Shown here: piece by piece, positions 1,697-35,095 of the stretch
Numbering within the stretch: the first letter of the stretch is position 1
Layout of the letters: every line of letters starts with the position of its first letter
Origin: Nilaparvata lugens
Lineage: Eukaryota > Arthropoda > Insecta > Hemiptera > Delphacidae
Direction of reading: 5' to 3'
Length of the DNA: 64,000 nt
Assembly (NCBI RefSeq): GCF_014356525.2
Contig: NC_052507.1
Location: forward strand, 930,001 to 994,000
The notes under the pieces: model-generated
Databases searched by the model: none
What the model was told of the DNA's origin: nothing
The model's input: only the letters and a program-made list of their open reading frames with translations
Program-made: the position numbers and the translations under genes

Positions 1697-2945
1697 TATC
1701 GAATAATTATCCTCATCTCATACTATTAAACGAGAGATTTTTGTTTTTATGTTTAGATGTTTAGTTTTCTGGATGTTTGGATGTTTATATGTTTGTATTT
1801 CACCGGATCTCAAAAACTGCTCCAACGATTCTTACGAAATTCAGAACATATTAGGTTTATAATATAAAAATTCGATTGCACTTGGTCTCATCCCTGAAAA
1901 AACTCGTTGAAGGATAATAATTATTCATCTCAGGAAAAACAGCTGATAATAATTATTTCGTCGTCTGTTGAAGATGGAAGTGAGTGAGCGAGCTCATGCA
2001 CTACCTCCGTAAAGAAAGCCGTAGTGCATTCGTGTGACGTCAGCATAGGTAGGGCTTCTACACCAATAAAAACACTAGCTGATATGGATCAGCTGAAATC
2101 AACAAATTTTTATTGGTGTAGCAGCCCTACCTGTGCTGACGTCACCAGACTGCACTACGGCTTTGTTTACGGAGGTTCATGTGTGTGGGAGGACTGTGTA
2201 AAAATTATGACTCAGCTGTTGAACTTTTGTAATCATCCAATCAGTTACTCAGTGCCGGTTGCAAAAAAGCTGGGTTATTTTCAATCCTGATTAATTCCAA
2301 TAGATCCATCATTTTGAATGGTCTTCTCTGATTTTGTTCACGTGAAATTAATCAGGATTGAAATTTAACTGGCTTTTGTGCAACCGGCACTGAGTAACTG
2401 ATTGGATGATTACAAAAGTTCAACAGCTGAGTCATAATTTTTACACAGTCCTCCCACACACATGAACCTCCGTAAACAAAGCCGTAGTGCAGTCTGGTGA
2501 CGTCAGCACAGGTAGGGCTGCTACACCAATAAAAATTTGTTGATTTCAGCTGATCCATATCAGCTAGTGTTTTTATTGGTGTAGAAGCCCTACCTATGCT
2601 GACGTCACACGAATGCACTACGGCTTTCTTTACGGAGGTAGTGCATGAGCTCGCTCACTCACTTCCATCTTCAACAGACGACGAAATAATTATTATCAGC
2701 TGTTTTTCCTGAGATGAATAATTATTATCCTTCAACGAGTTTTTTCAGGGATGAGACCAAGTGCAATCGAATTTTTATATTATAAACCTAATATGTTCTG
2801 AATTTCGTAAGAATCGTTGGAGCAGTTTTTGAGATCCGGTGAAATACAAACATATAAACATCCAAACATCCAGAAAACTAAACATCTAAACATAAAAACA
2901 AAAATCTCTCGTTTAATAGTATGAGATGAGGATAATTATTCGATA
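1697..2945. repeat. 1.25-kb foldback with ~600-bp arms
   Basis: Arms 1697-2300 and 2342-2945 are near-perfect reverse complements with a constant coordinate sum of 4642, so there are no indels over most of the length. The outer part (cgagagatttttg, tttagatgttt, caccggatct) matches a dispersed Helitron-like family at 14289-14442, 15180-15340 and 23050-23265. The centre holds a small MITE. Mirror-image 88-codon frames in the two arms are a by-product of the symmetry. Confidence 0.9.
2249..2394. mobile_element. Small foldback MITE at foldback centre
   Basis: The ends agtgccggttgca and tgcaaccggcact are inverted repeats. The interior carries two inverted copies of an attaatc/gattaat core. It belongs to the same family as 21072-21224, and a decayed relative sits at 15450-15560. 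It sits exactly at the symmetry axis of the 1697-2945 foldback. Confidence 0.65.
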
Positions 2946-4929: not shown

Positions 4930-6068
4930 TGAAAATCAATATTTAGTATTCATGGTGTCACAAAGTGAATTTTTGTGACGGATGGAGAGCCGTCGTCTAG
5001 TGTAAAATTAGCGAATTTATTCTGTTTTAGAATTAGAATAGGGTCGACGACTTCCAGATATATATTGTTGGACTTGTAGTAGTGTATGCACATCATCACC
5101 ATCGTCGCCAATCCCTATGAATCATCAGCAGCGGATTCATCATAACCAGAAATTTCCAGATCTTGTTTACCACTCTGAGCGTTCTCGTATTTTGTATTGC
5201 ATTAGCAGCATCCGTATCATCAAAACGATAAGCGACTACCGAGTTGAGTCGGTATCATTCTTCTTGTAATTTCTGGTGAGAAATATTGTTTACCGGCCTG
5301 ATTTAGTGTAGCAATTAGTATCATTGTCATCATTAGCTGCACCCTTAGCATCAGCACTAGTGGATTCAAACCCTGTCACATGACCAGTGGCGTGATCGTC
5401 TTTTCAGACTCTCATTGGTCGGCAATCTCTTTTCCCCAGGCCTCCTAATTTTCAGCGACCCGGTGCTGCTTCAAGAAGACCTGGGAGAGAAGCAGTTGTT
5501 CGGTGAACGGGTTTGTGTACAGCTGCGTTCCAAGCGGCGCTCCTAATAGTGGTGTACTAGAGGGTTAATATTCTATTCTGTATTTTAGTGAATGGAATAT
5601 TGTATGTCGAATTGCCGACTGTATTTGAAGGTGGATTTTCCTGGGGGATTCTCTGTCCTTGTAGGTCTCATTTAGGGCAGTTGTTCGGTGGTTGAGTGTG
5701 AGATTGGGTCGCAAATCTCCTCTCCTTACGACGTTACCGATACTAATTATTATTCTATCTTGTGTTAACATAGAATATTGTAGGTCGAGTTCCGAACAAC
5801 ACGGAGTTAGAACTCCCTTGTGGGTTTTTCTTTCTTATCAGCTATTTTTCCTAAATTCGTATCACTGGGGGTGAACGTGTTATCCTTGGTTTGAAACCTG
5901 TAAGGGATCTCAAGTTTGTGCTACAAATAGTTGAGTGGGGAATTTAGCTAGGCTCTTAAGCAGATAGAACATTTCTTGTATGGATGTTATTATAATATCT
6001 TCTTTCTTATAAATTTGTTATGCTTTTGTAGTGCAGAGCGAACGAAGCTTGGTCCCTGATATTTTTTA

Positions 6069-6102
6069 TAACCTGACGATGGTGAGATCACCGAAACTAG
6101 TA
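6069..6102 (+). ncRNA. Hammerhead core, stem I broken
   Basis: The order is CTGACGA (6073-6079), a GGTG/CACC stem II hairpin, GAAA (6093-6096), then CTAG-TA. This is a complete hammerhead core, but the bases after the predicted cut (CCAT) do not pair with the upstream TAAC. An identical copy is at 15727-15760. It faces the degenerate motif at 4893-4929 in inverted orientation. Confidence 0.5.
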
Positions 6103-6231
6103 CCATTTTAATTCTTGTTTTTTTATATTTTATTAATTTTAAAGGGTACTATAATTCTATTTTATAAATACAAGAAAGTAGCTTTCAGTTCATACATTTA
6201 AAAAAACTTTAATATACCGTGGTTTACATCT

Positions 6232-7037
6232 TCAAAAAAAAAATCTGGTGTGGCGCACTCACACAACTCTCCTTGCCGTTATGAAATTTGATCACCTGAC
6301 GCTAGTGTTCACGCGCATCTCAAGTCTACTATTCAAAGATTTGAGCCAGCTGGTGACAGGGTAATAACGCTGGAGACACACATGAGGTCTGCTATCTCTT
6401 CATAGTGAATGATTTGATAGAATCAACAATAATTTGAAATTGAATAATCACATTTTCTCGAATTTAAAGCTTATTTTCAATTTTAGGTGAAAATGTTACT
6501 GAACATTAATTGTAGGGATTTTCATGCTCAATCTACTACACTTGATTTTTTTTGTTTCAACCGTATCTGAAGCCTGATAATTGGGAATCTATCTGCATTG
6601 ATGGGGCGGAGCTCCTGAAATTTTTACAGATATGGGACTTGTGGCAGTTGATAGAGCTTATCGATGACTAGTTTAGGTATGAATTTGATCAAAATCGTTG
6701 GAGCCGTTTCCGAGAAAATCACGAAAAACCCTGTTTTTGACAATATTTTCGCCATTTTAGCCGCCATCTTGAATTGCATTTGATCGAAATTGTTCGTGTC
6801 GGATCCTTATAGTGAAAGGACCTTAAGATCCAAATTTCAAGTCATTCCGTCAATTGGGAGATGAGATATCGTGTACACAGACGCACATACACTCACACAC
6901 ACACACACATACATATACCCAAAAACCAGTTTTTTGGACTCAGGGGACCTTGAAACGTATAGAAATTTAGAAATTGGGGTACCTTAATTTTTTTCGGAAA
7001 GCAATACTTTCCTTACCTATGTTAATAGGGCAAGGAA
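6232..7037 (-). repeat. C-family repeat with CA microsatellite
   Basis: It has the ends atctggtgtggcgcactcac and ggcaaggaaagt, with an internal CA run at 6894-6910. Copies are at 15895-16695, 19430-19915 (partial), 23868-24912, 26459-27690, 29237-30243, 33748-35095 and 54855-55757. No protein is encoded. A 38-base flank (tttaatataccgt..ttacatcttc) is repeated on both sides (about 6200-6236 and 7038-7075). Confidence 0.75.
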
Positions 7038-7381
7038 AGTAAAAAACTTTAATATACCGTAGTTTACATCTTCAAAATATAGTTCAACTTGATTAATATA
7101 ACCACCAATATTACTAGGAAAGTGCATATCGGTACATGCACACAATACAGGACTAGAAAGAATTGTATGAAAATATAATTTAAAAAAATTAAAAGGAGGA
7201 CAATCCATATGGGAGATGAATATTTTAATATTTGTGATTCAAAATCCATGATAGATGAAAAGCGTGTAACATTTGCATTGACTGCATTGATTTGTTCTTT
7301 GAATGTCTTCCGGTTTTTATAAATGTGTAAATTGACAATCATTTAATGCACTCATACATTTTATGAATAAAAATTATTCAA

Positions 7382-7570
7382 TTGATTGGAAGTGACCGTA
7401 ATCGTCTGAATGTTCCAGATGCTGTTGAAAAGATCGATCACCTCTTGATAGATCATTATTATGAAAGAGAGATTAAGTCTTATAACAAGGATGAAGAAAA
7501 TCGTAAGAGAAGAGCGATAAGGAGAAAGAGAAGACAGATAACTCCATCTTCAAGCTCGTCATTCATGTAA
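7382..7570 (+). CDS. 62-codon basic ORF in triplicated unit, unknown
   Basis: An open frame of 62 codons ends at TAA, with a charged middle (KDEENRKRRAIRRKRRQ) and a serine-rich end. Its first codon would be TTG, with no ATG nearby. It is therefore more likely the last exon of something, captured by the repeat, than a free-standing gene. An AATAAAT poly(A)-like signal lies about 190 bases downstream. Identical frames occur at 17038-17226 and 20261-20449. I do not recognise the family. Identity between copies reflects recent duplication and does not by itself prove selection. Confidence 0.3.
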   Translation: MIGSDRNRLNVPDAVEKIDHLLIDHYYEREIKSYNKDEENRKRRAIRRKRRQITPSSSSSFM

Positions 7571-7966
7571 AAACAAAATTTTCTATTATCAGGAATCATA
7601 ATATACTTTGATCAGAGACTCAATACTTTATAATATATTAAGCATGAAGATAAGATACATCGGTTATTCTAAGCGATGGTATATATAATTTATCATTATA
7701 CTGATATAATACTTATACCCGCCAACTCTTATGTGAGCCAACTTATTTCATATTCCTGTAATAAATACTATTTACAAACTTCATTCACTGATATGGGATT
7801 AAAGTTTTTTATAATAAAATTAGTAAAAATGTATAATACAAACAAACAAAATTATGGAATTAGTAAATAAATATTAATGTTCTATTAAGGATAATAATAA
7901 GAAAGGTTATTTTTAGAAAAATGAAAAACAGTAAAGAGTGGAATGAAGAATAAATAGTTTCAATAT

Positions 7967-10963
7967 TTACAGTCTAACTAAATTTTCACAATTTTCCACT
8001 CCAATATCAACCAACCAGGAAAATAAACTTTTCTTGAACCTGTGTCTATTGAATTCTTCCCTAATGTAACTTGGTATTGAATTATAAATTTTTGGTCCCA
8101 AATATGTGTAGTTTCTTTGCCCAAATGTAGTGTTCATCCTTGGTACTATTGAATACGTGTTTCTCTGCCTTGTTTGATGGTTATGATCTGCCAGTCTTAT
8201 GTGTTCGTTGTTTCTCCTCATTCGCGTGATGATAGCCTGGATGTAGAGTTGTCTTACACTCAGTACTTTACTGTCCTTGAAAAGAATGTTCGTGGGGAAT
8301 TGATTCTCCTTGAAGCCTATTATTTTTAGTATTCGTTTTTGAAGTTTATAGAGAGGTTCAACATGTGTAAAATTCGTAGCTCCCCAGATAATTATGACGT
8401 ATCTTAAAATTGATTGCACTAAAGAAAAATAAACAGTTTTTAATGTCTCATAGTTGAGGATTTTACGGAGTTGATAGAATTTGTAGAGAAGCTTCCTGAT
8501 CCGGGTAATTGATAGATTAATGTGCTTGTCCCATTTGAATTTGTTGTCCACTATTGTTCCTAAATATTTTATTTCATTGACTTGTTGAATTGAAGGGCAA
8601 TCACACGGGTTGTTGGTGCTTCCACAGTGATGCAGGATTATTGAAGAATCCGGTGGTCTCGTCCGTTCTGTCAGAGAAAAGGCTAAAAATTTCGTTTTTG
8701 TTGCATTTACTGTAAGCAAATTTTCTCTTAACCATTTATCGACTTTGATCAATTCTTCCTGTGCCAGATTAAAAACTTCCTCCCAGGTGTTTCCTTCAAA
8801 TAGTATACACGTATCATCAGCAAAAGCTATTACTCTTCCTCTTATCTTAATTGAACATAGCTCATTTGCATATGCCAAATACAGAATTGGCCCAAGAACT
8901 GTTCCTTGGGGAATCCCAAACTTCATCGTTTCCTCTGAACTGAGATGTTCTTCAACTTTGACTTTTTGACGCCGGTCACAGAGGTATGATCTAAACCATG
9001 CTAGAGGAACTCCTCTAATTCCCATGGCTTCTAATTTCTTCAGCAGCAAACTGTGATTAACAGTGTCAAAAGCTTTTGCTAGGTCCAGGAACACTGCTGC
9101 ACATTTTTTGTTATTTTCTAGCTTATCTGTGACAAAATTTGACAATTCTAATACCGCATCTTCTGTACTCCTCCCCTCACGAAAACCAAATTGATTCCTA
9201 GATAGTAAGTTGTTTTTTTCCATGTAATTCACAAGACGTTTCTTTACCAGTTTTTCCAAAATCTTAGAAATATTGCTTATAAGTGAAATAGGCCTGTAAT
9301 TGGTGGCATTTGTTTTGTCGCCTCCTTTATGTAATGGTCTAACACATGTCTCTTTCATAGCTTTTGGAAAAATTCCTTTTGACAGACTTAAATTAAATAT
9401 GTGAATTAATGGTTTTACAATTACATTTTTTATCGACTTCAATGTTCTATTATTGATTCCATCAAGTCCTGGAGCACTGTCATTTCGCAAACTACTAATA
9501 GCTTCAAGAAGCTCATCTTCAGTTACTGGGTGAAAGTAGATGGAGTGTAGAGTTCTTGTAACAGGTTTATATTGGGATATGATTTGGTCTAGTGGTTTTC
9601 TTAAGGAATCTATTATTGTCTCCGCCATTTCTTCACCTACATTTGTGAAAAAGTTATTCATGTGGTTGAGCACAGTTTCTGGATTTTCCTTTAGATTGAA
9701 AATCCTATCATCTATTTTAATAGCATTCAATTTCATTTTTGTTTTTGATTTAGAGTCAGTAGCATCTTTGATTACTTTCCACATTTTTTTATTATCCTTT
9801 CCAGCTTCATACAATTTCTCTCTATAGTATTGGTCCTTTGTTTCATGAATTAAAGCTGTGAGTGTATTCCTATACCGACGATAGAAGTTGGTTAAGTTAA
9901 TGTTGTTTGGGTCTTCCTTTCTTCTTTTGTTGAGTAGATTTCTGGTTCTTATTGCTGCTACTATACCTCTGGTGATCCATGGTTTGATGGGTTTGTACTT
10001 CTTCTGCCGCCGATGCTGCTTGATATTATTTTGTATATGTTGTCTCAGAGTTGATAAGAAGGTGTCATAAGATGTATCTGGATTATTATCTTCTAAAACA
10101 TGAATCCACTCCTCATTCAGTAGTTCATTCTTCAAGCTATTAATGTCTATTTTCTCGTTTATTTCATGTGTTCCAGTTTCATTTGCACTATTTCTCGAAA
10201 TATGTTGCACTCCTAGAATTGTGGTGAAGTGGTCAGTTATTGTTGATTCATAAATGATTGGAAAAAGATTATCTCTGGAGTTGGTAGCAATGTGATCTAT
10301 GCAAGAAGCAGTTTCTGTTGTAGTTCTGGTTGCTTGTTTAATGCAGAGTCTGAGCCCATGCTCGCTTAGAAGATCGCAGTAGTCATTCAATTGATGATGT
10401 GGACGAATTTGAAGGGTGTTAATATTCATGTCTCCGGCACATATGACTTGTTGCCCTCTTAATTCATTCAGGATCGATTCCAAGTCACTCAGGAAATCTG
10501 TAATATCATTGAAGGACGGTGATCTGTATATTGCAAGGATGTTCCACTTTTTGTCTGCTGCATCCAACCGAATATGTAGGACATTTGCCTGGTTAATATG
10601 TAGCTCAACACATTGTACATTTATACTATCTTTAACATAAACAACTACACCATCATTTTGTAATGGGTTGTTTATGGTGGAAAATACATCATATCCTCGA
10701 ATGGACTGGAGTACAAATTCAGTCCTAATCCAGCATTCGGTTAGAATAATAACATCAAAAGAAAAATTAATGTCGCACAATTGAATCATCAGCTCATCAA
10801 AATTTCTTCTGATACTCCTTATATTGAGACAGAAGATGCTCAAATCACAAGAACTCAATGCTGCACAAAGTTGTTGACTGTTGTTGATCACTTCATCGTT
10901 TATTTCTTCAAAATAATCAAGATCCTCGAAGCTGAGCAAATTTGATAAGTTGTTGTTACTCAT
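7967..10963 (-). CDS. LINE ORF2: AP endonuclease and reverse transcriptase
   Basis: This intact 998-codon frame would copy the element's RNA into a nicked chromosomal target. The endonuclease covers roughly residues 43-250: FCLNIRS (44-50), LTECW with E76, AIYRSPS (144-150), GDMN (177-180), CIDHI (221-225) and TITDHF (241-246). The reverse transcriptase covers about 537-800: NYRPISL (555-561), FLDLAKAFD with D627, GIPQGTVLGP (683-692) and the FADD active site (714-717). A long thumb/C-terminal region follows, with WGATNF- and QKRILKIIG-type motifs. There is no RNase H. The pattern fits the Jockey/CR1 supergroup, and the exact clade is not settled. Its ATG lies inside the last codons of the helicase ORF (ATGAGTAA, 8-base overlap), suggesting translation by reinitiation after the helicase stop. 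Confidence 0.93.
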   Translation of the reverse strand: MSNNNLSNLLSFEDLDYFEEINDEVINNSQQLCAALSSCDLSIFCLNIRSIRRNFDELMIQLCDINFSFDVIILTECWIRTEFVLQSIRGYDVFSTINNPLQNDGVVVYVKDSINVQCVELHINQANVLHIRLDAADKKWNILAIYRSPSFNDITDFLSDLESILNELRGQQVICAGDMNINTLQIRPHHQLNDYCDLLSEHGLRLCIKQATRTTTETASCIDHIATNSRDNLFPIIYESTITDHFTTILGVQHISRNSANETGTHEINEKIDINSLKNELLNEEWIHVLEDNNPDTSYDTFLSTLRQHIQNNIKQHRRQKKYKPIKPWITRGIVAAIRTRNLLNKRRKEDPNNINLTNFYRRYRNTLTALIHETKDQYYREKLYEAGKDNKKMWKVIKDATDSKSKTKMKLNAIKIDDRIFNLKENPETVLNHMNNFFTNVGEEMAETIIDSLRKPLDQIISQYKPVTRTLHSIYFHPVTEDELLEAISSLRNDSAPGLDGINNRTLKSIKNVIVKPLIHIFNLSLSKGIFPKAMKETCVRPLHKGGDKTNATNYRPISLISNISKILEKLVKKRLVNYMEKNNLLSRNQFGFREGRSTEDAVLELSNFVTDKLENNKKCAAVFLDLAKAFDTVNHSLLLKKLEAMGIRGVPLAWFRSYLCDRRQKVKVEEHLSSEETMKFGIPQGTVLGPILYLAYANELCSIKIRGRVIAFADDTCILFEGNTWEEVFNLAQEELIKVDKWLRENLLTVNATKTKFLAFSLTERTRPPDSSIILHHCGSTNNPCDCPSIQQVNEIKYLGTIVDNKFKWDKHINLSITRIRKLLYKFYQLRKILNYETLKTVYFSLVQSILRYVIIIWGATNFTHVEPLYKLQKRILKIIGFKENQFPTNILFKDSKVLSVRQLYIQAIITRMRRNNEHIRLADHNHQTRQRNTYSIVPRMNTTFGQRNYTYLGPKIYNSIPSYIREEFNRHRFKKSLFSWLVDIGVENCENLVRL

Positions 10964-12023
10964 TATTTAAACTCTCATTAATCCCTTCCATTCTTCTTTC
11001 ATTCCAGCTTAAGAGAAACTCTTCACTAACATCCTTTAGTTTTCGAATTAGGGTCAGCACTAAATCTTCTTGCCCTGTTGTGATATATCTGAAGGTTTGT
11101 GTGTGTCTGCTCATTGCTACTATTACATGTTGTGTGCTGTTATATATTCCAAGTTGTTTTTTATTGTTCCTTATCAGAACTACATTCTTGTGAGTTAAGC
11201 CCTGTGCTTCATGAATTGTATGGACTTTAACTGAAGGGTGAAGTTTTGATTGCAGCTCTTCTAGCACTGTTTTCTTCTCGAGCTGAGTGAATGTAAGAAT
11301 CAGAGTGTTAGGTTCAAGTGGTCCAAGTTCTCCATTTGTTATTGGAGGTCTGACGGATAACAGGACCTCATTTTTCGTACTAATGTCCTGGTAGTAGCTG
11401 GAAAGGATGTAGCAGACGTCTATTGGACACCTTCTAGTTACTGTTTGATGGATTCTCTTCTCACAGAGAGATGAAATGTGTGACCATTCAGCTGTTAATT
11501 TACTTCTCTCTATGTAAGGTATTTGGTTTGAATCTCCTAGCAGAATAATCTCAGAAGCACCAGCGAGAGATGAGACAAATCCCACGAAACCTGCATGCAT
11601 TAATACTGCTTCATCTATGAAAACACGTTTGTACTGCTTTTTTGATCCGTTTATTATAAAAGATGAAACTGTTCTATAATCCTGTTTAATTATTCTTTCA
11701 TATTTATTTTTGTGAATTCTATTCACCTCTTGCCTAATTTCATTTATTCCAGCTCTTGTCTGACACAAAATGAGATCTTTACCTGGTGTATGTTGCTGAA
11801 GGATAAAGTGAGTTTTACCACACCCTGGAACTCCATCCATCCAAGTTATTTTTGGCATCTTACAATTTGTGATGTCAACTTTTAGAATATTCTTCAGCAG
11901 CTCAGCATTCAGCATGATTTGGGTGTCTCTACTGACTAGAATATACTTTTCCTTAGTTAAGAATGACTTTGTTGTTTCATTGTAGGGTACGTATTTTCCT
12001 TCATTTTCTAAACAGAAGCCCAT
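10956..12023 (-). CDS. Superfamily 1 helicase, RNA-virus (alphavirus-like) type
   Basis: An intact 355-codon frame carries all the motifs of the helicase of alphavirus-like plus-strand RNA viruses: I/Walker A GVPGCGKT (64-71), II VFIDEA (134-139), III LLGDSNQIPY (161-170), IV TRRCP (196-200), V HTIHEAQGLTHKNVVLI (268-284) and VI VAMSRHTQTFRY (302-313). The segment before Walker A (KITWMDG) also matches the tobamo/virga style. It should bind and hydrolyse NTP and unwind RNA. All key residues are present, so activity is plausible. It lies between the gag-like and RT ORFs of the LINE. It overlaps the upstream ORF by 16 bases and the RT ORF by 8. The frame is open upstream of the ATG back to a TAA near 12056, which leaves open that it was once continuous with the preceding ORF. 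From memory, such helicases are reported in insect TRAS/R1 and Jockey LINEs. Confidence 0.92.
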   Translation of the reverse strand: MGFCLENEGKYVPYNETTKSFLTKEKYILVSRDTQIMLNAELLKNILKVDITNCKMPKITWMDGVPGCGKTHFILQQHTPGKDLILCQTRAGINEIRQEVNRIHKNKYERIIKQDYRTVSSFIINGSKKQYKRVFIDEAVLMHAGFVGFVSSLAGASEIILLGDSNQIPYIERSKLTAEWSHISSLCEKRIHQTVTRRCPIDVCYILSSYYQDISTKNEVLLSVRPPITNGELGPLEPNTLILTFTQLEKKTVLEELQSKLHPSVKVHTIHEAQGLTHKNVVLIRNNKKQLGIYNSTQHVIVAMSRHTQTFRYITTGQEDLVLTLIRKLKDVSEEFLLSWNERRMEGINESLNNE

Positions 12024-12889
12024 TCGATATGTAGTGGATGTCGGCCACAGAAAGTCTTAAGTCGATTGTCGTAGATGTTCATCTCGTTTCGCCTTATCTC
12101 TTGAATACATGCTGCTGAAGAAGAGATATTACTATTCAGTGATGATAGTACTCCCCTATATAAATCCGCATTCAGAACATCATACTGTTGAATAAAGTTC
12201 CTGAGTTCTATCATACTGTTCAAATAAGCATAAAGAATAGAATCATACGGTAGGTATCCTTTTGGACAATCTTCAGAGCCATCGTTTTCATGTGGTATAT
12301 CCAAGAACTTTAGATTGTTTATTCCTCTGTAATAGAATACATAATTCAGGTTTTTAGTTTTAATTACTAAACTTAAAATGTCCAAGCATGTAAACTCGGA
12401 GTCAATATCAAAAGAATCTATTCCAATCGTAATGTTGTATTTATTTATCGATGCATATTCGTCTATTACCAGTAAGAGGTCACGGATACCTAATTGAGCC
12501 TCATTGTTATTATTTTGCGCTAATATCAATGTCAATGAATTTTTAACAAGATGAAAACGAATTGAGCTATTATTTACGTTCCGTAAATAAACAGTAGGTA
12601 AGCTATTGTATTCATCTTGACTCAGCGTTTTCTTCTTGATTGAATGTGCAACGCCTTCTGAAATACGTAAACAATTTTTATTCCAGCGAGCTAATGATAA
12701 ATTAAAATCTGTATATTGACCAAAGCTGAAAATCAAAGACGTCCTACTTTTCGCTGACTGTTTTATTAATTCTGTTTTTTTAATAGATGATAGGAAATCT
12801 TGAATATCTATTTTTATATTTGATGCTGTGAATTTATTTGATGATTTTGAGCTGGAAATTCTATTTTTAATCTTTTTAAGCACTTCCAT
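12008..12889 (-). CDS. LINE ORF of unknown function before helicase
   Basis: A 293-codon frame starts at the first ATG (12889). It is open five codons further, to a TTG at 12904. No known domain is recognised. The N-terminus is lysine/serine-rich and the middle has hydrophobic strand-like stretches (LTLILAQ, IRDLLLVIDEY, ITIGIDSFD). The end, FCGRHPLHIEW, overlaps the helicase start by 16 bases. It follows the zinc-knuckle ORF with a 14-base overlap counted from the ATG. It could be the virus-derived segment that normally precedes the helicase in a viral replicase, or a domain of the LINE's own ORF1. A single indel near 12050 could have separated it from the helicase frame. It has no in-frame stop over 880 bases of AT-rich DNA, which supports real coding. 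Confidence 0.7.
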   Translation of the reverse strand: MEVLKKIKNRISSSKSSNKFTASNIKIDIQDFLSSIKKTELIKQSAKSRTSLIFSFGQYTDFNLSLARWNKNCLRISEGVAHSIKKKTLSQDEYNSLPTVYLRNVNNSSIRFHLVKNSLTLILAQNNNNEAQLGIRDLLLVIDEYASINKYNITIGIDSFDIDSEFTCLDILSLVIKTKNLNYVFYYRGINNLKFLDIPHENDGSEDCPKGYLPYDSILYAYLNSMIELRNFIQQYDVLNADLYRGVLSSLNSNISSSAACIQEIRRNEMNIYDNRLKTFCGRHPLHIEWASV

Positions 12890-14141
12890 AATTTGTTCGA
12901 TCAATTGATTGTTGCAATGCTTTCACATAGCTGGGACACTTTAGATAGTTTACTTTGTGGTCTGAGGGTTTATCAGCTCTTTTGCAGTTAAAACATACTG
13001 GAGGTTTATCGATTGAAGGGCAGGTTTTGATGTTGTGCCCTGTGATGGAGCAATGACCACAGATATCTTCTTCCTTTTTACAATGTTTTGTGATGTGCCC
13101 ATAGACTTGACATTTATAGCACCTTTGCACTGCATGATAATCATTAACTCTACATGATGTCATATCTATAAATATTTTTTTCTTATTAATTATTGCTTTC
13201 CTAATTTCGGGTTCACATTCTACTACCCAATGCACGGAATCCTTGTTTTTCGGCCCTAATTTGAATGATGGCTTGCAACCTTCTTCAAATTTTTGTTTTT
13301 CTATTCCTGAATTGACAAAATTTTTGTTATATATTTCTTCAGTTACCTCTTTGTTAGTGAGATCAGATGGAACATCATAAACAATTATCCTGGGTTTTTA
13401 TTTTGGGGCTCAGTTATCTTGATTTGATCATTATTCACAGCTTTATTCTTCAATAATTTCTTTTTGTCCTCTAGAGAATCCAGAACAATGAGTAAACCTC
13501 CTCCTCTAACGGGTACTGTCTTTTTTATTTTAATGTTATCCTTTCTCGCGATGTTGGTTTTCAGTGTTCCTTTTATTTTTCACTGTCTTGTTTCTCATTA
13601 CCGGTGGAATTTGAGGGTTTAATTAAGACTACCTGTTCTTTTGGAAGGATTTTCCTGACTTGATTATTGGACTGGGGATCGCTTGAAGTAGCTTTTTTCG
13701 GTAGTTGTATCATGTCTGCGTAAGTAATAGGCCTGTCTTTATTTTTAATTTCCTGAACAGATTTGCTTATGTCCTGTAATGAGTCATGAATTTTCGGATG
13801 CCCTAAAGTATCACTTATTTGGCTAATAGTAACTGCTCTCGTTTCTACTTTCACGATTACCAATGCTAATTTTTGAACTAATTCTAAGAAATTATCATAT
13901 TCGGCTCTGGAAACCTTGTTTTTTTAAATTCTGACGAAGCCCATTCCTTGAATTCCGAAGAGATACTCTTCATGTTCATTATGTCTGTGTTGAATTCACT
14001 CAGCAATAATTGTTCAACAGTTTCCATTTTACCTGGTTGTTCTCGTACTTTGAGTCCTTGGTTCCCTGGAAAGTTATCCTCTTCTTCCTCCTCCTCGAAT
14101 TGCGGGATCAGTCCATCCGGTGGTTTGGTTGGTGACCTCAT
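12876..14141 (-). pseudogene. LINE ORF1 (gag-like, CCHC zinc knuckles), frame-broken
   Basis: This is the RNA-binding ORF1 protein of the LINE. It starts at ATG 14141 with an acidic stretch (QFEEEEEEDNF), then a helical segment (ISSEFKEWASSEF), the TYADMIQLPKK motif typical of this ORF1 class, and three knuckles. Two knuckles are canonical CX2CX4HX4C (CYKCQVYGHITKHC and CGHCSITGHNIKTC), and a third is longer (C-x2-C-x8-H-x6-C). The reading frame changes by -1 three times, each time at or beside a run of A on the coding strand: 13919-13925 (7 bases), 13576-13580 (5) and 13395-13399 (5). No other stops intervene. These may be true indels, assembly errors in homopolymers, or slippage. The frame ends with TAA at 12876 inside the start of the next ORF. 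Confidence 0.75.
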
Positions 14142-14287
14142 CTATCCGACGACGATGACGTATGAAGATAGCTGCTGTATGGTTATGTTCCAGTGACCCA
14201 CTTATTGATGAACGATGATTGTTTTGAAAACTATCACTACGGTGAAACTAAACTACTAAGATGTTTACTCTACGAGCGCTACTGTAA
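14142..14287 (-). other. LINE 5' leader
   Basis: About 146 bases lie between the inferred element start and the ORF1 ATG. LINEs of this type carry their promoter inside the leader, but I could not identify a clear initiator or downstream promoter element here. Confidence 0.4.
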
Positions 14288-14442
14288 GACTTCTGTTCAT
14301 ATGTTTGGATGTTCAGATGTTTAGATGTTTAGATGTTTATATGTTTATATTTCACCGGATCTCGAAAACGGCTCTAACGATTCTCACGGTATTCAGAACA
14401 TAGTAGGTTTACTATATAAAACATCAATTGCACTAGGTCTCA
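14288..14442. repeat. Helitron-like repeat fragment
   Basis: Matches 15204-15340 and the arms of the 1697-2945 foldback (tttagatgtttatatg, caccggatctcgaaaacgg, gcactaggtctcat). It abuts the LINE on the left and the second copy of the large repeat unit on the right. Confidence 0.7.
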
Positions 14443-15726
14443 TATGCCGAATATAACTTCAAACTCTTGAAATTTGCAGTTACTTGCCTTACGTATTGTC
14501 TTTCATATATTGTTCACTAAATTGTATTGCTCAAGCCTGGTTTTTATTCTGTAGTTTTGAAACATCTCAACTACACGACAAGCTATGACAGCTTGTTGAG
14601 CAATTTTTACTACTTGTCCTTTTTTTACAATTTTTGTTTCTATTTCGGCGCAAACTGCATGAAAGTGTGTGCAATTACAACGTAGATCTCGCTATAGAGT
14701 TAAAATCTTGATATCAATTTATAAGCATTCAGTCAAAGCTATCTTACGAATATTTACTCTCAATAAAGTCAACATTTTTTTCATTTTTCAGTACCACTTT
14801 GCAAGCTTTAAAAAAAGCCTTTCCTGGGGAAACTAGTGTTCTGGGAAAAGATGTGAACAACCGGTTCAATTTATACTATTTATTCAGTCTTGAAAAAAGA
14901 AAATATACACACTACAAGGTGAGAAAAAATATACAGTTGATGCTGCCTTAAGCTTTATTCTTTATTATTAATTTATTCTTATTACAATAAGTACATCATA
15001 AGAATTATAGGGAGAGGAGGAATAACTTCAATATTTTTTGAAAATAGAACTATAGTACCCTTTAAAATTGATAAAATATTAAAAACCAAGAATATAAATT
15101 GTAATGTCACTACTTGTTTCGGTGATCACACCATAGTACGGTTATAAAAATCAATGTTTAGTATTCATAAGAAAACATTTATCCTATAATATTAAACGAG
15201 CAACTTCTGTTCATATGTTTAGATGATTAGATGTTTATATGTTTATATTTCACCGGATCTCGAAAACGGCTCTAACGATTCTCACGTAATCCAGAACATA
15301 GTAGGTTTACTATATAAAACATCAATTGCACTAGGTCTCATTCCTGGGAAAACTCGCTGAAGGACATTAAAATGATGATTATTATTCATCCTTGGGAAAA
15401 CAGCTGATAATAATTATTTCGTCGAGTGTTGGTGATGGAAGTGAGTGAATTTCAATCCTGATTAATTCCAGTAGATCCATCTTTTTTAATTGGTCTTCTC
15501 TGATTTGGTTCACGTGAAGTTAATCAGGATTAAAATTCAACCGGCTTTTGTGCGACTCTGGGACTTGGTGAGGGAAATTTTTGCATTCCTCTGAGAATTA
15601 ATCTCAATTTACTTTGATCAGATAGAACATTTCTTGTATGGATGTTATTATAATATATTCTTTCTTATAAATTTGTTATGCTTTTGTAGTGCAGAGCGAA
15701 CGAAGCTTGGTCCCTGATATTTTTTA

Positions 15727-15760
15727 TAACCTGACGATGGTGAGATCACCGAAACTAGTA
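15727..15760 (+). ncRNA. Hammerhead core, stem I broken (duplicate)
   Basis: Identical to 6069-6102 through the large duplication. CTGACGA, stem II, GAAA and CTAG-TA are present, but the stem I partner is lost. Confidence 0.45.
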
Positions 15761-15894
15761 CCATTTTAATTCTTGTTTTTTTATATTTTATTAATTTTAA
15801 AGGGTACTATAATTCTATTTTATAAATACAAGAAAGTAGCTTTCAGTTCATACATTTAAAAAAACTTTAATATACCGTGGTTTACATCTTCAAA

Positions 15895-16695
15895 AAAAAA
15901 ATCTGGTGTGGCGCACTCACACAACTCTCCTTGCCGTTATGAAATTTGATCACCTGACGCTAGTGTTCACGCGCATCTCAAGTCTACTATTCAAAGATTT
16001 GAGCCAGCTGGTGACAGGGTAATAACGCTGGAGACACCATGAGGTCTGCTATCTCTTCATAGTGAATGATTTGATAGAATCAACAATAATTTGAAATTGA
16101 ATAATCACATTTTCTCGAATTTAAAGCTTATTTTCAATTTTAGGTGAAAATGTTACTGAACATTAATTGTAGGGATTTTCATGCTCAATCTACTACACTT
16201 GATTTTTTTTGTTTCAACTGTATCTGAAGCCTGATAATTGGGAATCTATCTGCATTGATGGGGCGGAGCTCCTGAAATTTTTACAGATATGGGACTTGTG
16301 GCAGTTGATAGAGCTTATCGATGACTAGTTTAGGTATGAATTTGATCAAAATCGTTGGAGCCGTTTCCGAGAAAATCACGAAAAACCCTGTTTTTGACAA
16401 TATTTTCGCCATTTTAGCCGCCATCTTGAATTGCATTTGATCGAAATTGTTCGTGTCGGATCCTTATAGTGAAAGGACCTTAAGATCCAAATTTCAAGTC
16501 ATTCCGTCAATTGGGAGATGAGATATCGTGTACACAGACGCACATACACTCACACACACACACACACATACATATACCCAAAACCAGTTTTTGGACTCAG
16601 GGGACCTTGAAACGTATAGAAATTTAGAAATTGGGGTACCTTAATTTTTTTCGGAAAGCAATACTTTCCTTACCTATGTTAATAGGGCAAGAAAA
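15895..16695 (-). repeat. C-family repeat with CA microsatellite (duplicate)
   Basis: Equivalent to 6232-7037, with small length differences in the CA run (16551-16567). Confidence 0.75.
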
Positions 16696-17037
16696 GTAAA
16701 AAACTTTAATATACCGTAGTTTACATCTTCAAAATATAGTTCAACTTGATTAATATAACCACCAATATTACTAGGAAAGTGCATATCGGTACATGCACAC
16801 AATACAGGACTAGAAAGAATTGTATGAAAATATAATTTAAAAAAATAAAAGGAGGACAATCCATATGGGAGATGAATATTTTAATATTTGTGATTCAAAA
16901 TCCATGATAGATGAAAAGCGTGTAACATTTGCATTGACTGCATTGATTTGTTCTTTGAATGTCTTCCGGTTTTTATAAATGTGTAAATTGACAATCATTT
17001 AATGCACTCATACATTTTATGAATAAAAATTATTCAA

Positions 17038-17226
17038 TTGATTGGAAGTGACCGTAATCGTCTGAATGTTCCAGATGCTGTTGAAAAGATCGATCACCTC
17101 TTGATAGATCATTATTATGAAAGAGAGATTAAGTCTTATAACAAGGATGAAGAAAATCGTAAGAGAAGAGCGATAAGGAGAAAGAGAAGACAGATAACTC
17201 CATCTTCAAGCTCGTCATTCATGTAA
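17038..17226 (+). CDS. 62-codon basic ORF, second identical copy
   Basis: Same protein as the frame at 7382-7570, carried by repeat unit copy 2. Function unknown. The TTG start argues that it is a captured exon and not a complete gene. Confidence 0.3.
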   Translation: MIGSDRNRLNVPDAVEKIDHLLIDHYYEREIKSYNKDEENRKRRAIRRKRRQITPSSSSSFM

Positions 17227-17420
17227 AAACAAAATTTTCTATTATCAGGAATCATAATATACTTTGATCAGAGACTCAATACTTTATAATATATTAAGCA
17301 TGAAGATAAGATACATCGGTTATTCTAAGCGATGGTATATATAATTTATCATTATACTGATATAATACTTATACCCGCCAACTCTTATGTGAGCCAACTT
17401 ATTTCATATTCCTGTAATAA

Positions 17421-18068
17421 ATATCATATAAAAAATTCCTAAACTGTTTTATTCTTTATTCTTGAAGCCTCAATTTTATCATTACAGTAATGATATGAGA
17501 AGAAGGAGAAAAATCCTATGGAAGGAAAAATTTGTTGAATACTTGGAGCCTTAATATTACAGTAATGATATGAAAAGAAAAAGAAAAATCTGGTGTTGTA
17601 CACTCACACAACTTTCCTTGCTCATTGACCTGTAAGCCTCGTTCTTAAACGAGAATAATTTAGGGGAATAACATAATGACGATTGGCGGCAACATATTTT
17701 AAACTACGATCAGACTACTGTTTATGTGTATATTATAATATTAATTGTTTTCAGAGTACTTTTTCCTTTGTGTAAATAATTGTGGAATAGATGATTTTTT
17801 AAAAGTCGTCATAACAGCTGTTCTACAGATGAAATATCTCGAATCATGTGTTCTTTTTATAAACTCTGCTCTACCCACCTACCTCAAGCACGAGAGGGAG
17901 GTTATAATAGTTATTTGTGCAACTAGTGTGCAAAGTGACAGTTTGCTGCACCGAAAGAAACGTTTACGCCCGAGCCGTAGGCAAGGGCGGAATGGCTTCT
18001 TGAGTGCAGCAGACGAACTTTGCTCACGTATTTCACATTAAACTTTTCCTACAGTTACCATTGAATAT
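17421..18068. repeat. Duplicated segment, ending in D-family repeat
   Basis: Matches 20641-21060 and 21226-21290. The D-family start (aatagttatttgtgcaact) is at 17911. The D copy continues after the LINE insertion at about 19277. Confidence 0.7.
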
Positions 18069-18079
18069 GAGAACTGGTT

Positions 18080-19265
18080 CGTTCGTTCGTTTGTGTCAGG
18101 TGATTATACTTGTATTATATGCCTAAATTAGAATAGTAATCCACTGTTATAGCAGCTTCGTCATTAAAATTAAAGAGGTCTTGTCGATTGCATGCTGGTG
18201 CAAGACGGCACTTTAGGAGGTGTCATCTGACTGGATGTCTCCACAGTCACAATAAGGATCATCAATCTGCCTCCAAGTAGTGCGGTTTTCTTTAGTGCAA
18301 GCACACTCTGCTCTAAGGCGGTTCAGAGTTTTCCATTTACTGTACGGTAGCTCTGCTCCTGCTGTCAGTTGCTCCCTCAGCACTGAGTCAGTGGCATCTG
18401 CACCCTCATGCCAGAGTCGAATTCTTTCTTGTGGTGCTGAGGAGCCCAGCTCCTGTGTCTCTGTTAGAAAGCTGCGACGGGACTTCAAACGGTGAATTGC
18501 AGGGGTATGGCCAAACATTGGATGCCTTTCATCATTAGCTTGGCGAGTTCGCTCGGCCCTACCTGCTATCTCTCTCCGGATTGATGGAGGGGCTATCCCA
18601 CTCAGTTGGTAGAGGTAGTGAGTTTTAGTTGGTTTTAGGCAGCCAGTCACAATCCGGCAGCTTTCGTTGAGAGCCACGTCTACCTTCTTAGCATGGGCTG
18701 AGCGACCCCACACAGGACAAGCATATTCACCAGTGGAGAAACACAGGGCTAAGGCTGTTGTTCGCAGGGTGTGAGCATCAGCACCCCAGGCAGACCCAAC
18801 CAGCTTGCGTAAGAGTGCATTTCTGGAGTTGACCTTCTTTTTCGTTTTTTCACAGTGAGCTTTGAATGTCAGGCTTCTGTCCAATTGAACACCAAGATAA
18901 GTTGGGTTTGCCACATGTGTCAGCTGCTGGCCAGACCAAAAGATTTTAAGCTCCCTTTGGGCTTCTTTGTTTCTGAGGTGGAAAGCACTTACTACAGTCT
19001 TTGTTGTGTTCACCTTCAGGAGATTTGCTTTGTAGTATTTGACTAACTCTGGAATGAAACTATTCAGCTTGTCTTCGACTTCTTTAAAGGTGTTTCCTTT
19101 GGCTGCTACTGCCAGGTCATCAGCATAAATGAAATGTTTTGTGCTGTCTCCAATAGGTTGGTCATTCACAAAAACATTGAAAAGGGCACTCGCGCTCTCA
19201 AAGAGTTTCACCAAAGTTTTATATTAGCAGTTGGAGAACAAAATGCAGCCATACAGGTGATACAA
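18080..19265 (-). pseudogene. 5'-truncated LINE with RT fragment (YADD)
   Basis: A 333-codon minus frame (19214-18213) begins within the RT domain. It has FNVFVNDQP, the HFIYADDLAVAA active site, YLGVQLDRSLTFKAHC, EYACPVWGRSAHAK, CRIVTGCLKPT and IAPPSIRREIA. This is the second half of a LINE RT of a type common in invertebrates. Near 18215 a frameshift moves the end into another frame (HLLKCRLAPACNRQDL) that stops at 18115. The endonuclease and the first RT blocks are missing. The 3' end on the element strand is AACGAACGAACG. An 11-base duplication, GAGAACTGGTT (18069-18079 and 19266-19276), flanks the insertion, which split a D-family repeat. Confidence 0.88.
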
Positions 19266-19276
19266 GAGAACTGGTT

Positions 19277-19429
19277 GATTATATGATTATGGGTAAAATG
19301 ATGGCTGAAATCCATCAAATGTTTGTGTGTGTGTGATGCTGTTATTAATAACAACCTTAACTTAATTCATTTAAAAATTAATAATCCAATTGAAGTTGAA
19401 AATCTCAGCCAAAGTTCTCATTTTTATTC
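19277..19429. repeat. D-family repeat, remainder
   Basis: atgattatgggtaaaatgatggctgaaatccatcaaatg continues the D copy started at 17911 and matches 36030-36070 and 61850-61880. The rest is AT-rich, with no feature. Confidence 0.5.
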
Positions 19430-20640
19430 ATTCAACCGTATCTGAAGCCTGATAATTGGGAATCTATCTGCATTGATGGGGCGGAGCTCCTGAAATTTTT
19501 ACAGATATGGGACTTGTGGCAGTTGATAGAGCTTATCGATGACTAGTTTAGGTATGAATTTGATCAAAATCGTTGGAGCCGTTTCCGAGAAAATCACGAA
19601 AAACCCTGTTTTTGACAATATTTTCGCCATTTTAGCCGCCATCTTGAATTGCATTTGATCGAAATTGTTCGTGTCGGATCCTTATAGTGAAAAGACCTTA
19701 AGATCCAAATTTCAAGTCATTCCGTCAATTGGGAGATGAGATATCGTGTACACAGACGCACATACACTCACACACACACACACATACATATACCCAAAAA
19801 CCAGTTTTTTGGACTCAGGGGACCTTGAAACGTATAGAAATTTAGAAATTGGGGTACCTTAATTTTTTTCGGAAAGCAATACTTTCCTTACCTATGTTAA
19901 TAGGGCAAGAAAAGTAAAAAACTTTAATATACCGTAGTTTACATCTTCAAAATATAGTTCAACTTGATTAATATAACCACCAATATTACTAGGAAAGTGC
20001 ATATCGGTACATGCACACAATAAAGGACTAGAAAGAATTGTATGAAAATATAATTTAAAAAAATTAAAAGGAGGACAATCCATCCATATGGGAGATGAAT
20101 ATTTTAATATTTGTGATTCAAAATCCATGATAGATGAAAAGCGTGTAACATTTGCATTGACTGCATTGATTTGTTCTTTGAATGTCTTCCGGTTTTTATA
20201 AATGTGTAAATTGACAATCATTTAATGCACTCATACATTTTATGAATAAAAATTATTCAATTGATTGGAAGTGACCGTAATCGTCTGAATGTTCCAGATG
20301 CTGTTGAAAAGATCGATCACCTCTTGATAGATCATTATTATGAAAGAGAGATTAAGTCTTATAACAAGGATGAAGAAAATCGTAAGAGAAGAGCGATAAG
20401 GAGAAAGAGAAGACAGATAACTCCATCTTCAAGCTCGTCATTCATGTAAAAACAAAATTTTCTATTATCAGGAATCATAATATACTTTGATCAGAGAATC
20501 GATACTTTATAATATATTAAGCATGAAGATAAGATACATCGGTTATTCTAAGCTATGGTATATATAATTTATCATTATACTGATATAATACTTATACCCG
20601 CCAACTCTTATGTGAGCCAACTTATTTCATATTCCTGTAA
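19430..20640. repeat. Repeat unit copy 3 (partial)
   Basis: Matches 6575-7768 and 16229-17420 nearly exactly, including the C-family end with its CA run (19771-19785), the junction at 19910 and the 62-codon frame. It begins abruptly inside the C repeat. Confidence 0.85.
20261..20449 (+). CDS. 62-codon basic ORF, third identical copy
   Basis: Same protein as 7382-7570 and 17038-17226. Function unknown, and probably not an independent gene. Confidence 0.3.
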   Translation: MIGSDRNRLNVPDAVEKIDHLLIDHYYEREIKSYNKDEENRKRRAIRRKRRQITPSSSSSFM

Positions 20641-21071
20641 TAAATATCATATAAAAAATTCCTAAACTGTTTTATTCTTTATTCTTGAAGCCTCAATTTT
20701 ATCATTACAGTAATGATATGAGAAGAAGGAGAAAAATCCTATGGAAGGAAAAATTTGTTGAATACTTGGAGCCTTAATATTACAGTAATGATATGAAAAG
20801 AAAAAGAAAAATCTGGTGTGGTACACTCACACAACTTTCCTTGCTCATTGACCTGTAAGACTCATTCTTAATCGAGAATAATTAAGGGGAATAACATAAT
20901 GACGATTGGCGGCAACATATTCTAAACTACGATCAGACTACTGTTTATGTGTATAAATATATGATATTAATTGTTTTCAGAGTACTTTTTCCTTTGTGTA
21001 AATTGTGAAATAAGATGATTTTTTAAAAGTCGTCAAAACAGCTGTTCTAAACAGATGAAATATCTCGACTA

Positions 21072-33747: not shown

Positions 33748-33900
33748 TACTTTCCTTGCCCTATTACCATAGGTAAGGAAAGTATTGTTTTCCGAAAAAA
33801 ATTAAGGTACCCCAATTTCCAAATTTCTATACGTTTCAAGGTCCCCCCCCGAGTCCAAAAAAGTGGTCTTTGGGTGTTGGTCTGTATATGTGTGTGTGTG

Positions 33901-33938
<38 letters not shown>

Positions 33939-33971
33939 TGTGTGTGTGTGGTGTGTGTGTGTGTTGTGTGT

Positions 33972-34044
<73 letters not shown>

Positions 34045-34047
34045 TGT

Positions 34048-34114
<67 letters not shown>

Positions 34115-34292
34115 GTGTGTGTGTGGTGTGTGTGTGTGTGTGTGGTGTGTGTGTGTGTGGTGTGTGTGTGTGTGTGTGTGTGTGTTGTGGTGTGTGTGTG
34201 TGTGTGTGTGTGTTGTGTGTGTGTGTGTGTGGTGGTGTGTGTGTGTTGTGTGTGTGTGTGGTGTGTGTGTGTGTGTGTGTGTGTGTGGTGTG

Positions 34293-34334
<42 letters not shown>

Positions 34335-34344
34335 TGTGTGTGTG

Positions 34345-34405
<61 letters not shown>

Positions 34406-35095
34406 GTTGTGTGTGTGTGTGTGTATGTGTATGAGTGTATGTGCGTCTGTGTACACGATAACTCGTCTCCCAATCAACGGAATGACTTGAAATTTGGAAC
34501 TTACGGTCCTTTCCCTATAAGGATCCGACACGAACAATTTCGATCAAATGCAATTCAAGATGGCGGCTAGAATAGTAAAAATATTGTCAAAAACAGGGTT
34601 TTTCGCGATTTTCTCGAAAACGGCTCCAACGATTTTGATCGAATTCATACCGAGGATAGTCATTGATAAGCTCTATCAACTGCCACTAGTCTTATATCTG
34701 TAAAAATTTCAGGAGCTTCACCTCATCTATGCAAAGTTTGATTTTAGATTCCCAATTATCAGTCTTCGGATACAATTTGAATAAAAAAATCCAAGTGGAA
34801 AAGATTGAGCATGTAAATCTCTACAATTAAATTCAGTAACATTTTCACCTAAAATTGAAAATAAGTTCGAAATTCGAGAAAATGTGATTATTCAATTGCA
34901 AACTGTTGGCAACAGAACTGTTGATTCTATTAAATCATTCACTATGAAGAGATAGCAGACTCCGTGTGTCTGCAGCGCTATTGTCCTGTCACTAGCTGGC
35001 TCAGATCTTAGAATAGTGGACTCGAGATGCGCGTGAACACTAGCGTTAGGTGATCAATTTTCATAACGGCAAGGAAAGTTGTGTGAATGCGCCAC
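33748..35095 (+). repeat. C-family repeat with giant GT tract
   Basis: Standard C ends (tttttactttccttgccc and ggcaaggaaagttgtgtg..accagattttt) with T-runs at both flanks. The internal GT microsatellite is hugely expanded. Confidence 0.8.
33885..34441 (+). repeat. ~555-bp GT microsatellite
   Basis: Almost pure GT dinucleotides with scattered single-base interruptions (GG and TT). It creates long artefact frames of Val-Cys and His-Thr repeats on both strands. In other C copies the same tract is 15-60 bases. Confidence 0.95.

What the first reader, a model, noticed from the sequence alone, without database searches (positions are those of the whole stretch)
10956..12023. RNA-virus-type helicase gene inside a LINE
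Seen: all SF1 motifs of the alphavirus-like helicase (GVPGCGKT, FIDEA, GDSNQIPY, RRCP, HEAQGLTHKNV, AMSRHTQ) in an intact frame between a zinc-knuckle ORF1 and an endonuclease-RT ORF. Known: cellular LINEs do not normally carry a helicase, while plus-strand RNA viruses of the tobamo/virga/negevirus kind do. From memory (not checked), virus-like helicases have been reported in TRAS/R1 LINEs of Lepidoptera and in ORF1 of Jockey LINEs of Hemiptera and Orthoptera. Inference: this is a capture from an RNA virus that is now part of a young, possibly active element. It may help strand displacement during target-primed reverse transcription or counter RNA silencing.
Basis: partly seen in the sequence, partly recalled or inferred. 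Interest (0 to 1): 0.92.

Follow-up and report, generated by a model that had tools for sequence, protein, structure and literature searches.

The report
Virus-type helicase gene inside jumping gene
A jumping gene (LINE) in what looks like an insect genome carries a helicase gene of the kind found in plus-strand RNA viruses; such elements have been published, but here the helicase is a reading frame of its own beside an extra unknown gene.

Summary
The helicase is real. On the minus strand, ATG 12023 to stop 10956 encodes 355 aa with all quoted SF1 motifs (Pfam Viral_helicase1, E 9.5e-42; tobamovirus replicase helicase, 36% identity over a 299-aa stretch). It lies directly upstream of, and overlaps by 8 nt, an open endonuclease-RT frame of 999 codons. 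The kind is already published: Morozov et al. 2017 (PMC5563155) report dozens of Nilaparvata lugens sequences whose helicase ORF abuts or overlaps a Jockey ORF2. Each of the three downstream frames starts 8-16 nt inside the previous one. The gag-like zinc-knuckle region changes frame three times, so this copy is probably not autonomous unless the assembly is wrong; 'young, possibly active' is weakened, though helicase and RT frames are open. Other copies could not be sought: the own-genome search was unanswered 13 times and the protein database was switched off. Best reading: a damaged copy of a hemipteran-type Jockey LINE with a captured virga-like helicase, expressed by stop-start reinitiation and acting on the element's RNA. 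Function is inferred, not shown.

The parts
10956..12023 (-). Helicase ORF, ATG to stop (355 aa), SF1 viral type; the stop-to-stop frame begins at 12056
   Evidence: Pfam Viral_helicase1 E 9.5e-42; tobamovirus-type replicase helicase 135 bits, query 49-347; ATG position
7967..10963 (-). Endonuclease-reverse transcriptase ORF (ORF2 type), open from ATG 10963 to stop 7967; overlaps the helicase frame by 8 nt
   Evidence: RVT_1 E 1.3e-39; endonuclease profiles E 3.8e-5 and 1.9e-4, both below the Pfam cut-offs; LINE-1 ORF2p and R2 are the best solved matches
12008..12889 (-). Orphan ORF, ATG to stop (293 aa; 304 codons stop-to-stop from 12922), between zinc-knuckle ORF and helicase; its ATG lies 14 nt inside the preceding frame, and the helicase ATG lies 16 nt inside its end
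   Evidence: nothing above cut-off in Pfam (best UPF0231 E 0.05 and RSS_P20 E 0.22, both chance level), nothing in PDB at E up to 5, PHROGs best E 0.19
12876..13397 (-). C-terminal part of the gag-like ORF1 with three zinc-knuckle-like motifs (two CX2CX4HX4C and one CX2CX8HX6C)
   Evidence: read by eye from the translation; Pfam zinc-knuckle matches weak, E 0.076 and 0.094, below cut-off
13385..14141 (-). N-terminal gag-like region, open only in pieces: 14141-13884, 13923-13573, 13579-13385, then 13397-12876; each next piece is in a new frame, all three changes in one direction. A further 57-codon open stretch (14247-14074, another frame) may or may not belong to it
   Evidence: frame numbers; no ATG near the start of the second, third or fourth piece (first Met at codon 71, none, 79); Pfam only DUF7018 E 0.0099, below cut-off, for the second piece
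7768..7966 (-). Probable 3' UTR of the LINE; 3' end set where the flanking direct repeat stops
   Evidence: Local alignment of 7600-7767 with 17256-17423; BLAST extends the same repeat to 7790, so the end is uncertain by about 20 nt
14142..14286 (-). Probable 5' UTR or 5' end of the LINE; the exact 5' end is not determined (a different repeat begins at 14287-14310)
   Evidence: no target-site duplication found

Best explanation
It is a copy of a Jockey-type LINE (non-LTR retrotransposon), most likely of a hemipteran insect, that carries a helicase taken from a virga-like plus-strand RNA virus. Shown: the order gag-like zinc-knuckle ORF, orphan ORF, helicase, endonuclease-RT on one strand, with each downstream ATG lying 8-16 nt inside the preceding frame. 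Inferred: the element's RNA is read as a chain of cistrons by termination-reinitiation, as reported elsewhere for the SART1 LINE, so helicase and RT are made in small amounts from the same RNA. Because the helicase is a separate protein not joined to the RT, I think it more likely works on the element's RNA before integration (opening structured or double-stranded LINE RNA, with protection from RNA silencing as the likeliest benefit) than on strand displacement at the target. This copy itself is probably non-autonomous because its gag-like region has lost a continuous frame.
For: Helicase profile and solved-structure matches; Walker A, Walker B and motif VI residues shared with the tobamovirus helicase. 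RT frame open over 999 codons with LINE RT matches. Published elements with the same helicase/ORF2 neighbourhood in N. lugens, overlap 2 nt (PMC5563155 section 7). Stop-start overlaps of 14, 16 and 8 nt formed by the first ATG of each frame, and no such ATG at the three frame changes inside gag. SART1 precedent for overlapping stop-start coupling (PMC5972666 passage). Silencing suppression, called weak but detectable, for LINE-encoded helicases, assayed with the Plutella one (PMC6338049 passage; PMC4686597 passages).
Against: Only one copy was seen; other copies could not be searched. No RNA structure beyond chance up- or downstream of the three junctions (6 stretches of 150 nt, z 0.03 to 0.92), whereas the review seen says SART1 needs a downstream structure. 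The three junctions do not share one frame step (+1, -1, +1 by the frame numbers), so they could be unrelated accidents. The gag frame changes show that this copy has frame damage or assembly error, so the orphan/helicase frame break may also be damage. The silencing evidence comes from a TRAS element, not a Jockey one. Jockey membership of this RT and the hemipteran host were not tested.
Confidence: 0.55

Rival explanations
1. The helicase is the C-terminal domain of one long ORF1 protein (gag, middle region, helicase), as the published 'helicase in ORF1' wording suggests, and the separate frames seen here are frame damage or assembly errors in this copy.
For: The gag-like region has three frame changes of one direction next to A-rich stretches, so damage or sequence error is present in this copy. 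The zinc-knuckle and helicase ORFs lie in the same frame (frame 2). PMC5563155 speaks of helicase sequences 'integrated into ORF1'.
Against: At the three ORF junctions an in-frame ATG lies just before the preceding stop, whereas at the three gag changes none does. Runs of seven A in the RT, orphan and zinc-knuckle ORFs did not lose frame. PMC5563155 describes in N. [quoted passage not shown]
Confidence: 0.33
2. The helicase mainly helps reverse transcription (strand displacement or removal of RNA from RNA-DNA hybrid at the target site), as the first reader and the 2017 authors suggest.
For: Viral SF1 helicases can unwind RNA, RNA-DNA and DNA duplexes (PMC5563155 section 10, citing Lehmann et al. 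2015).
Against: The helicase here is a frame of its own, not fused to the RT. [quoted passage not shown]
Confidence: 0.2
3. The helicase serves the insect: its expression helps turn viral RNA into DNA or small RNAs and so defends against RNA viruses (published hypothesis).
For: Proposed in PMC6338049 (passages).
Against: Nothing found in this window speaks for host use: the copy is embedded in repeats. This is weak evidence, since expression could not be examined.
Confidence: 0.08
4. A one-off chimera or assembly join of a viral endogenous element next to a LINE.
For: Only one copy seen; surroundings are repeat-rich with 99% direct repeats that could confuse an assembler.
Against: The frames abut with overlaps of 8 and 16 nt on the same strand, and the same helicase-ORF2 neighbourhood is published in several insects.
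Confidence: 0.05

Closest known systems
SF1H-coding Jockey-like LINEs of Hemiptera and Orthoptera (Morozov et al. 2017, PMC5563155; Nilaparvata lugens, Homalodisca vitripennis, Ceuthophilus)
   Same: Virus-type SF1 helicase ORF directly upstream of, and overlapping, an EN-RT ORF2; full set of helicase motifs
   Different: Here the overlap is 8 nt (2 nt in the N. lugens contig named in the text), and a zinc-knuckle gag-like ORF plus a 304-codon orphan ORF lie upstream. The parts of the paper that I saw (abstract, sections 6, 7, 10, passages elsewhere) do not describe such upstream ORFs in these elements; its Figure 4 could not be viewed
SF1H-coding TRAS/R1 LINEs of Lepidoptera (Lazareva et al. 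2015, PMC4686597)
   Same: Same type of viral helicase in a LINE
   Different: There the helicase is a C-terminal domain of ORF2; here it is a separate frame before ORF2
Tobamovirus replicase helicase (PDB 3vkw, 3wrx; tomato mosaic virus by recall)
   Same: 36% identity over a 299-aa stretch, with the SF1 motifs
   Different: Part of a replicase protein; the orphan ORF finds neither this chain nor any other PDB chain at E up to 5
SART1 LINE (overlapping stop-start coupling; PMC5972666 passage)
   Same: Downstream cistron begins inside the end of the upstream one
   Different: SART1 has one such junction (UAAUG) with a downstream RNA structure; here there are three longer overlaps and no structure above chance

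Membership tests
Viral superfamily 1 RNA helicase (PF01443) | Full-length profile match above the curated cut-off | tested here: met
   143.8 bits against 21; profile 3-228 of 228
Viral superfamily 1 RNA helicase (PF01443) | Walker A (GCGKT), Walker B (DE), GD..Q, RCP, HE.QG, SRH motifs (motif list recalled) | tested here: met
   Invariant columns of the alignment with the tobamovirus helicase stretch
SF1H-coding Jockey-like LINE (PMC5563155) | Helicase ORF adjacent to or overlapping an EN-RT ORF2 | tested here: met
   ATG 10963 of RT lies inside the helicase frame that stops at 10956
SF1H-coding Jockey-like LINE (PMC5563155) | RT falls in the Jockey clade in a tree | not tested
   No reference LINE RT set was within reach; only general LINE RT similarity was shown. 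No RNase H profile appears at E up to 0.1; that Jockey elements usually lack it is recalled
SF1H-coding Jockey-like LINE (PMC5563155) | Multi-copy in the host genome and transcribed | not testable with these tools
   The genome search unanswered 13 times; no RNA data
SF1H-coding TRAS/R1 LINE (PMC4686597) | Helicase fused to the C-terminus of ORF2 | tested here: not met
   RT ORF ends at 7967 with no helicase match at E up to 0.1; helicase is upstream in its own frame
SART1-type coupled translation | Overlapping stop and start codons | tested here: inconclusive
   Frames overlap by 14, 16 and 8 nt, but these are longer than the UAAUG of SART1 and were seen in one copy only
SART1-type coupled translation | RNA structure downstream of the junction | tested here: not met
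   Three downstream stretches of 150 nt, z 0.03, 0.27, 0.33

The most novel reading that the evidence does not exclude
The element family is a four-cistron LINE (gag, an unknown protein, a virus-derived helicase, EN-RT) whose cistrons are chained by stop-start overlaps, so that the captured helicase came with, or was later joined by, a second accessory gene of unknown origin; this would be a LINE organised and translated more like a compact RNA virus than like other two-ORF LINEs.
Probability: 0.3. Interest if true: 0.65.

Novelty: new member of a known kind. Interest (0 to 1): 0.38.

Why it matters
If other copies show the same layout, the published statement 'helicase in ORF1' should be refined: the helicase would be its own cistron between a conventional gag-like ORF1 and ORF2, with an unknown partner gene. 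That makes two questions testable: how a eukaryotic RNA yields four proteins, and whether a captured viral helicase helps a LINE at the RNA stage or at reverse transcription.

Tried and rejected
Codon-usage scoring to show that the orphan ORF is coding: a first score was positive for the own frame of each of the 6 ORFs tested and negative for the two other forward frames of each, but with stop codons made neutral the helicase itself scored no better than random window stretches (585 of 2000 null stretches at least as good; orphan ORF 39 of 2000 in frame, 239 of 2000 against the best of six frames). The method has no power here and I do not use it. The evidence that the orphan ORF is coding is its length only (304 codons against a maximum of 208 in 300 simulations).

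AlphaFold2 on the orphan ORF alone: mean pLDDT 35.1, unusable; no fold search was made. RNA structure at the junctions: nothing. Relatives: helicase in viral contigs (9 stretches matched a pattern, 0 confirmed) and genome contigs (39, 0 confirmed); RT in viral contigs (3, 0 confirmed) and genome contigs (29, 0 confirmed); these tools warn that records near the window's own genome may be left out. The alignment query gave 1 confirmed contig of 71 stretches, matching 44 residues around Walker A. A Walker-A DNA pattern gave 42 stretches (L002-L043; L037 is the same contig as L001). By tblastn against all 43 loci only that contig was better than E 0.001; 10 more loci matched at E 0.004 to 0.048 over 29-44 residues around Walker A, and 18 more at E 0.065 to 0.82. 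So no helicase tree was built. Target-site duplication: no shared word of 8 or more between 14200-14480 and 7700-7860. Host species: the window reads as a repeat-rich insect genome; GC 34.8% and a recalled planthopper repeat suggest Nilaparvata or a relative, but no tool confirmed this.

Considered and rejected: an ordinary cellular helicase (no cellular chain among 6 PDB matches at E up to 10; the next best Pfam profile after Viral_helicase1 is AAA_19 at 27.3 bits, just above its cut-off of 25.1, against 143.8 bits).
Full report
Observation. Stop-to-stop it runs 12056..10956 (366 codons), and its first ATG is at 12023. It matches Pfam Viral_helicase1 over nearly the whole profile (143.8 bits, cut-off 21, E 9.5e-42); the next profile, AAA_19, reaches 27.3 bits (cut-off 25.1), and the other six of the eight families listed at E up to 0.1 stay below their cut-offs. 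Against all PDB chains at E up to 10 there are six distinct sequences: two called 'Replicase large subunit' (135 bits each; tomato mosaic virus by recall), one called 'helicase' (68 bits) and one 'Protease nsP2' (66 bits), both of alphavirus type, and two nidovirus-type entries, 'Helicase nsp13' and 'PP1b', at E 1.6 and 2.2 (the virus names of 6jim and 6jds are recalled). The MAFFT alignment with the tobamovirus stretch gives 36% identity and shares the Walker A, Walker B, GD..QIPY, RCP, HE.QG and SRHT residues. The viral type is therefore well supported; the direction of transfer is taken from the literature.

Surroundings. Downstream, overlapping by 8 nt, is an EN-RT ORF of 999 codons (RVT_1 E 1.3e-39; endonuclease matches E 3.8e-5 and 1.9e-4, below the Pfam cut-offs) whose best solved relatives are LINE-1 ORF2p and R2. 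It is longer than the longest of six frames in any of 300 simulated elements (maximum 208). Before it lies a frame with three zinc-knuckle-like motifs (13397..12876; read from the translation; Pfam matches below cut-off). Further upstream the gag-like region is open only in pieces with three frame changes in one direction.

Junctions. The first ATG of each of the three downstream frames lies inside the end of the frame before it: 14 nt (12889 to 12876), 16 nt (12023 to 12008) and 8 nt (10963 to 10956). At the three frame changes inside gag no such ATG exists. I read the former as cistron junctions and the latter as damage or assembly error, but the steps of the three junctions differ in direction (frame numbers), and no RNA structure above chance was found in six stretches around them. 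With one copy this remains an inference.

Ends. The 3' end of the LINE is about 7768, where a 99% direct repeat (copy at 15619-17446) breaks off at 7767 by local alignment or 7790 by BLAST. The 5' end is not determined (at or below 14286). No target-site duplication was found in the flanks searched, and the continuation of the interrupted repeat is not seen on the 5' side in the self-comparison (whose printed list was cut in the middle). So the insertion is not a clean, obviously recent one, although two long frames remain open.

Literature. Lazareva et al. 2015 (PMC4686597; start of abstract in a listing, and passages seen) reported tobamovirus-like helicase domains at the C-terminus of ORF2 of TRAS LINEs. 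Morozov et al. 2017 (PMC5563155; abstract, sections 6, 7 and 10, and passages seen) reported helicase ORFs in Jockey LINEs of Hemiptera and Orthoptera, including dozens of sequences in Nilaparvata lugens where the helicase ORF is very close to or overlaps ORF2, by 2 nt in the contig named. Morozov et al. 2019 (PMC6338049; passages seen) proposed antiviral roles and called the silencing suppression weak but detectable. I saw no later report of this layout in the listings of seven searches: 33 papers, 15 listed; 2; 6; 3; 4; 0; 181, 15 listed; of these papers I opened only PMC5563155, PMC6338049, PMC4686597 and PMC5972666. Subscription papers and Repbase are outside the library, and the figure showing the ORF layout could not be viewed. 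The SART1 precedent for stop-start coupling was seen as a passage in PMC5972666.

Mechanism. Identity (LINE with captured viral helicase) I hold at about 0.9. Separate cistrons made by reinitiation: about 0.5. RNA-stage role of the helicase (unwinding, silencing protection) rather than a role in reverse transcription: about 0.4 against 0.2. None of the functional steps is shown here.

What could not be done.

Verdict. A genuine member of a published kind, in a partly damaged copy, with one detail that I did not find described (an orphan ORF and chained overlaps) and that deserves a check in other copies.

Noticed in passing
window 18213-19223, minus: Second LINE fragment: 336-codon open frame with the C-terminal part of a reverse transcriptase (RVT_1 E 1.2e-4, below cut-off).
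   Followed up: partly
window 5961-7790, 15619-17446 and 19420-20669 (matches continue to 21068): Direct repeats of 1.2-1.8 kb at 98-99% identity on both sides of the LINE and further on; the first copy is cut off at about 7767 by the LINE's 3' end.
   Followed up: partly
window 1697-2945: Nearly perfect 1.25-kb palindrome (97% self-complementary), possibly a foldback transposon.
   Followed up: no
window 57053-58936: Tandem array with units of roughly 170 bases, of which an open stretch of 162 codons is a by-product.
   Followed up: no
window 33800-34500: Long CA/GT microsatellite that opens many frames of no meaning.
   Followed up: no
L037 (7,035-base IMG/VR contig, same as L001), around 1954-2082: The only IMG/VR contig with a helicase match better than E 0.001 to the LINE helicase (44 residues, 41% identity, E 7.6e-5); not studied further.
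   Followed up: no
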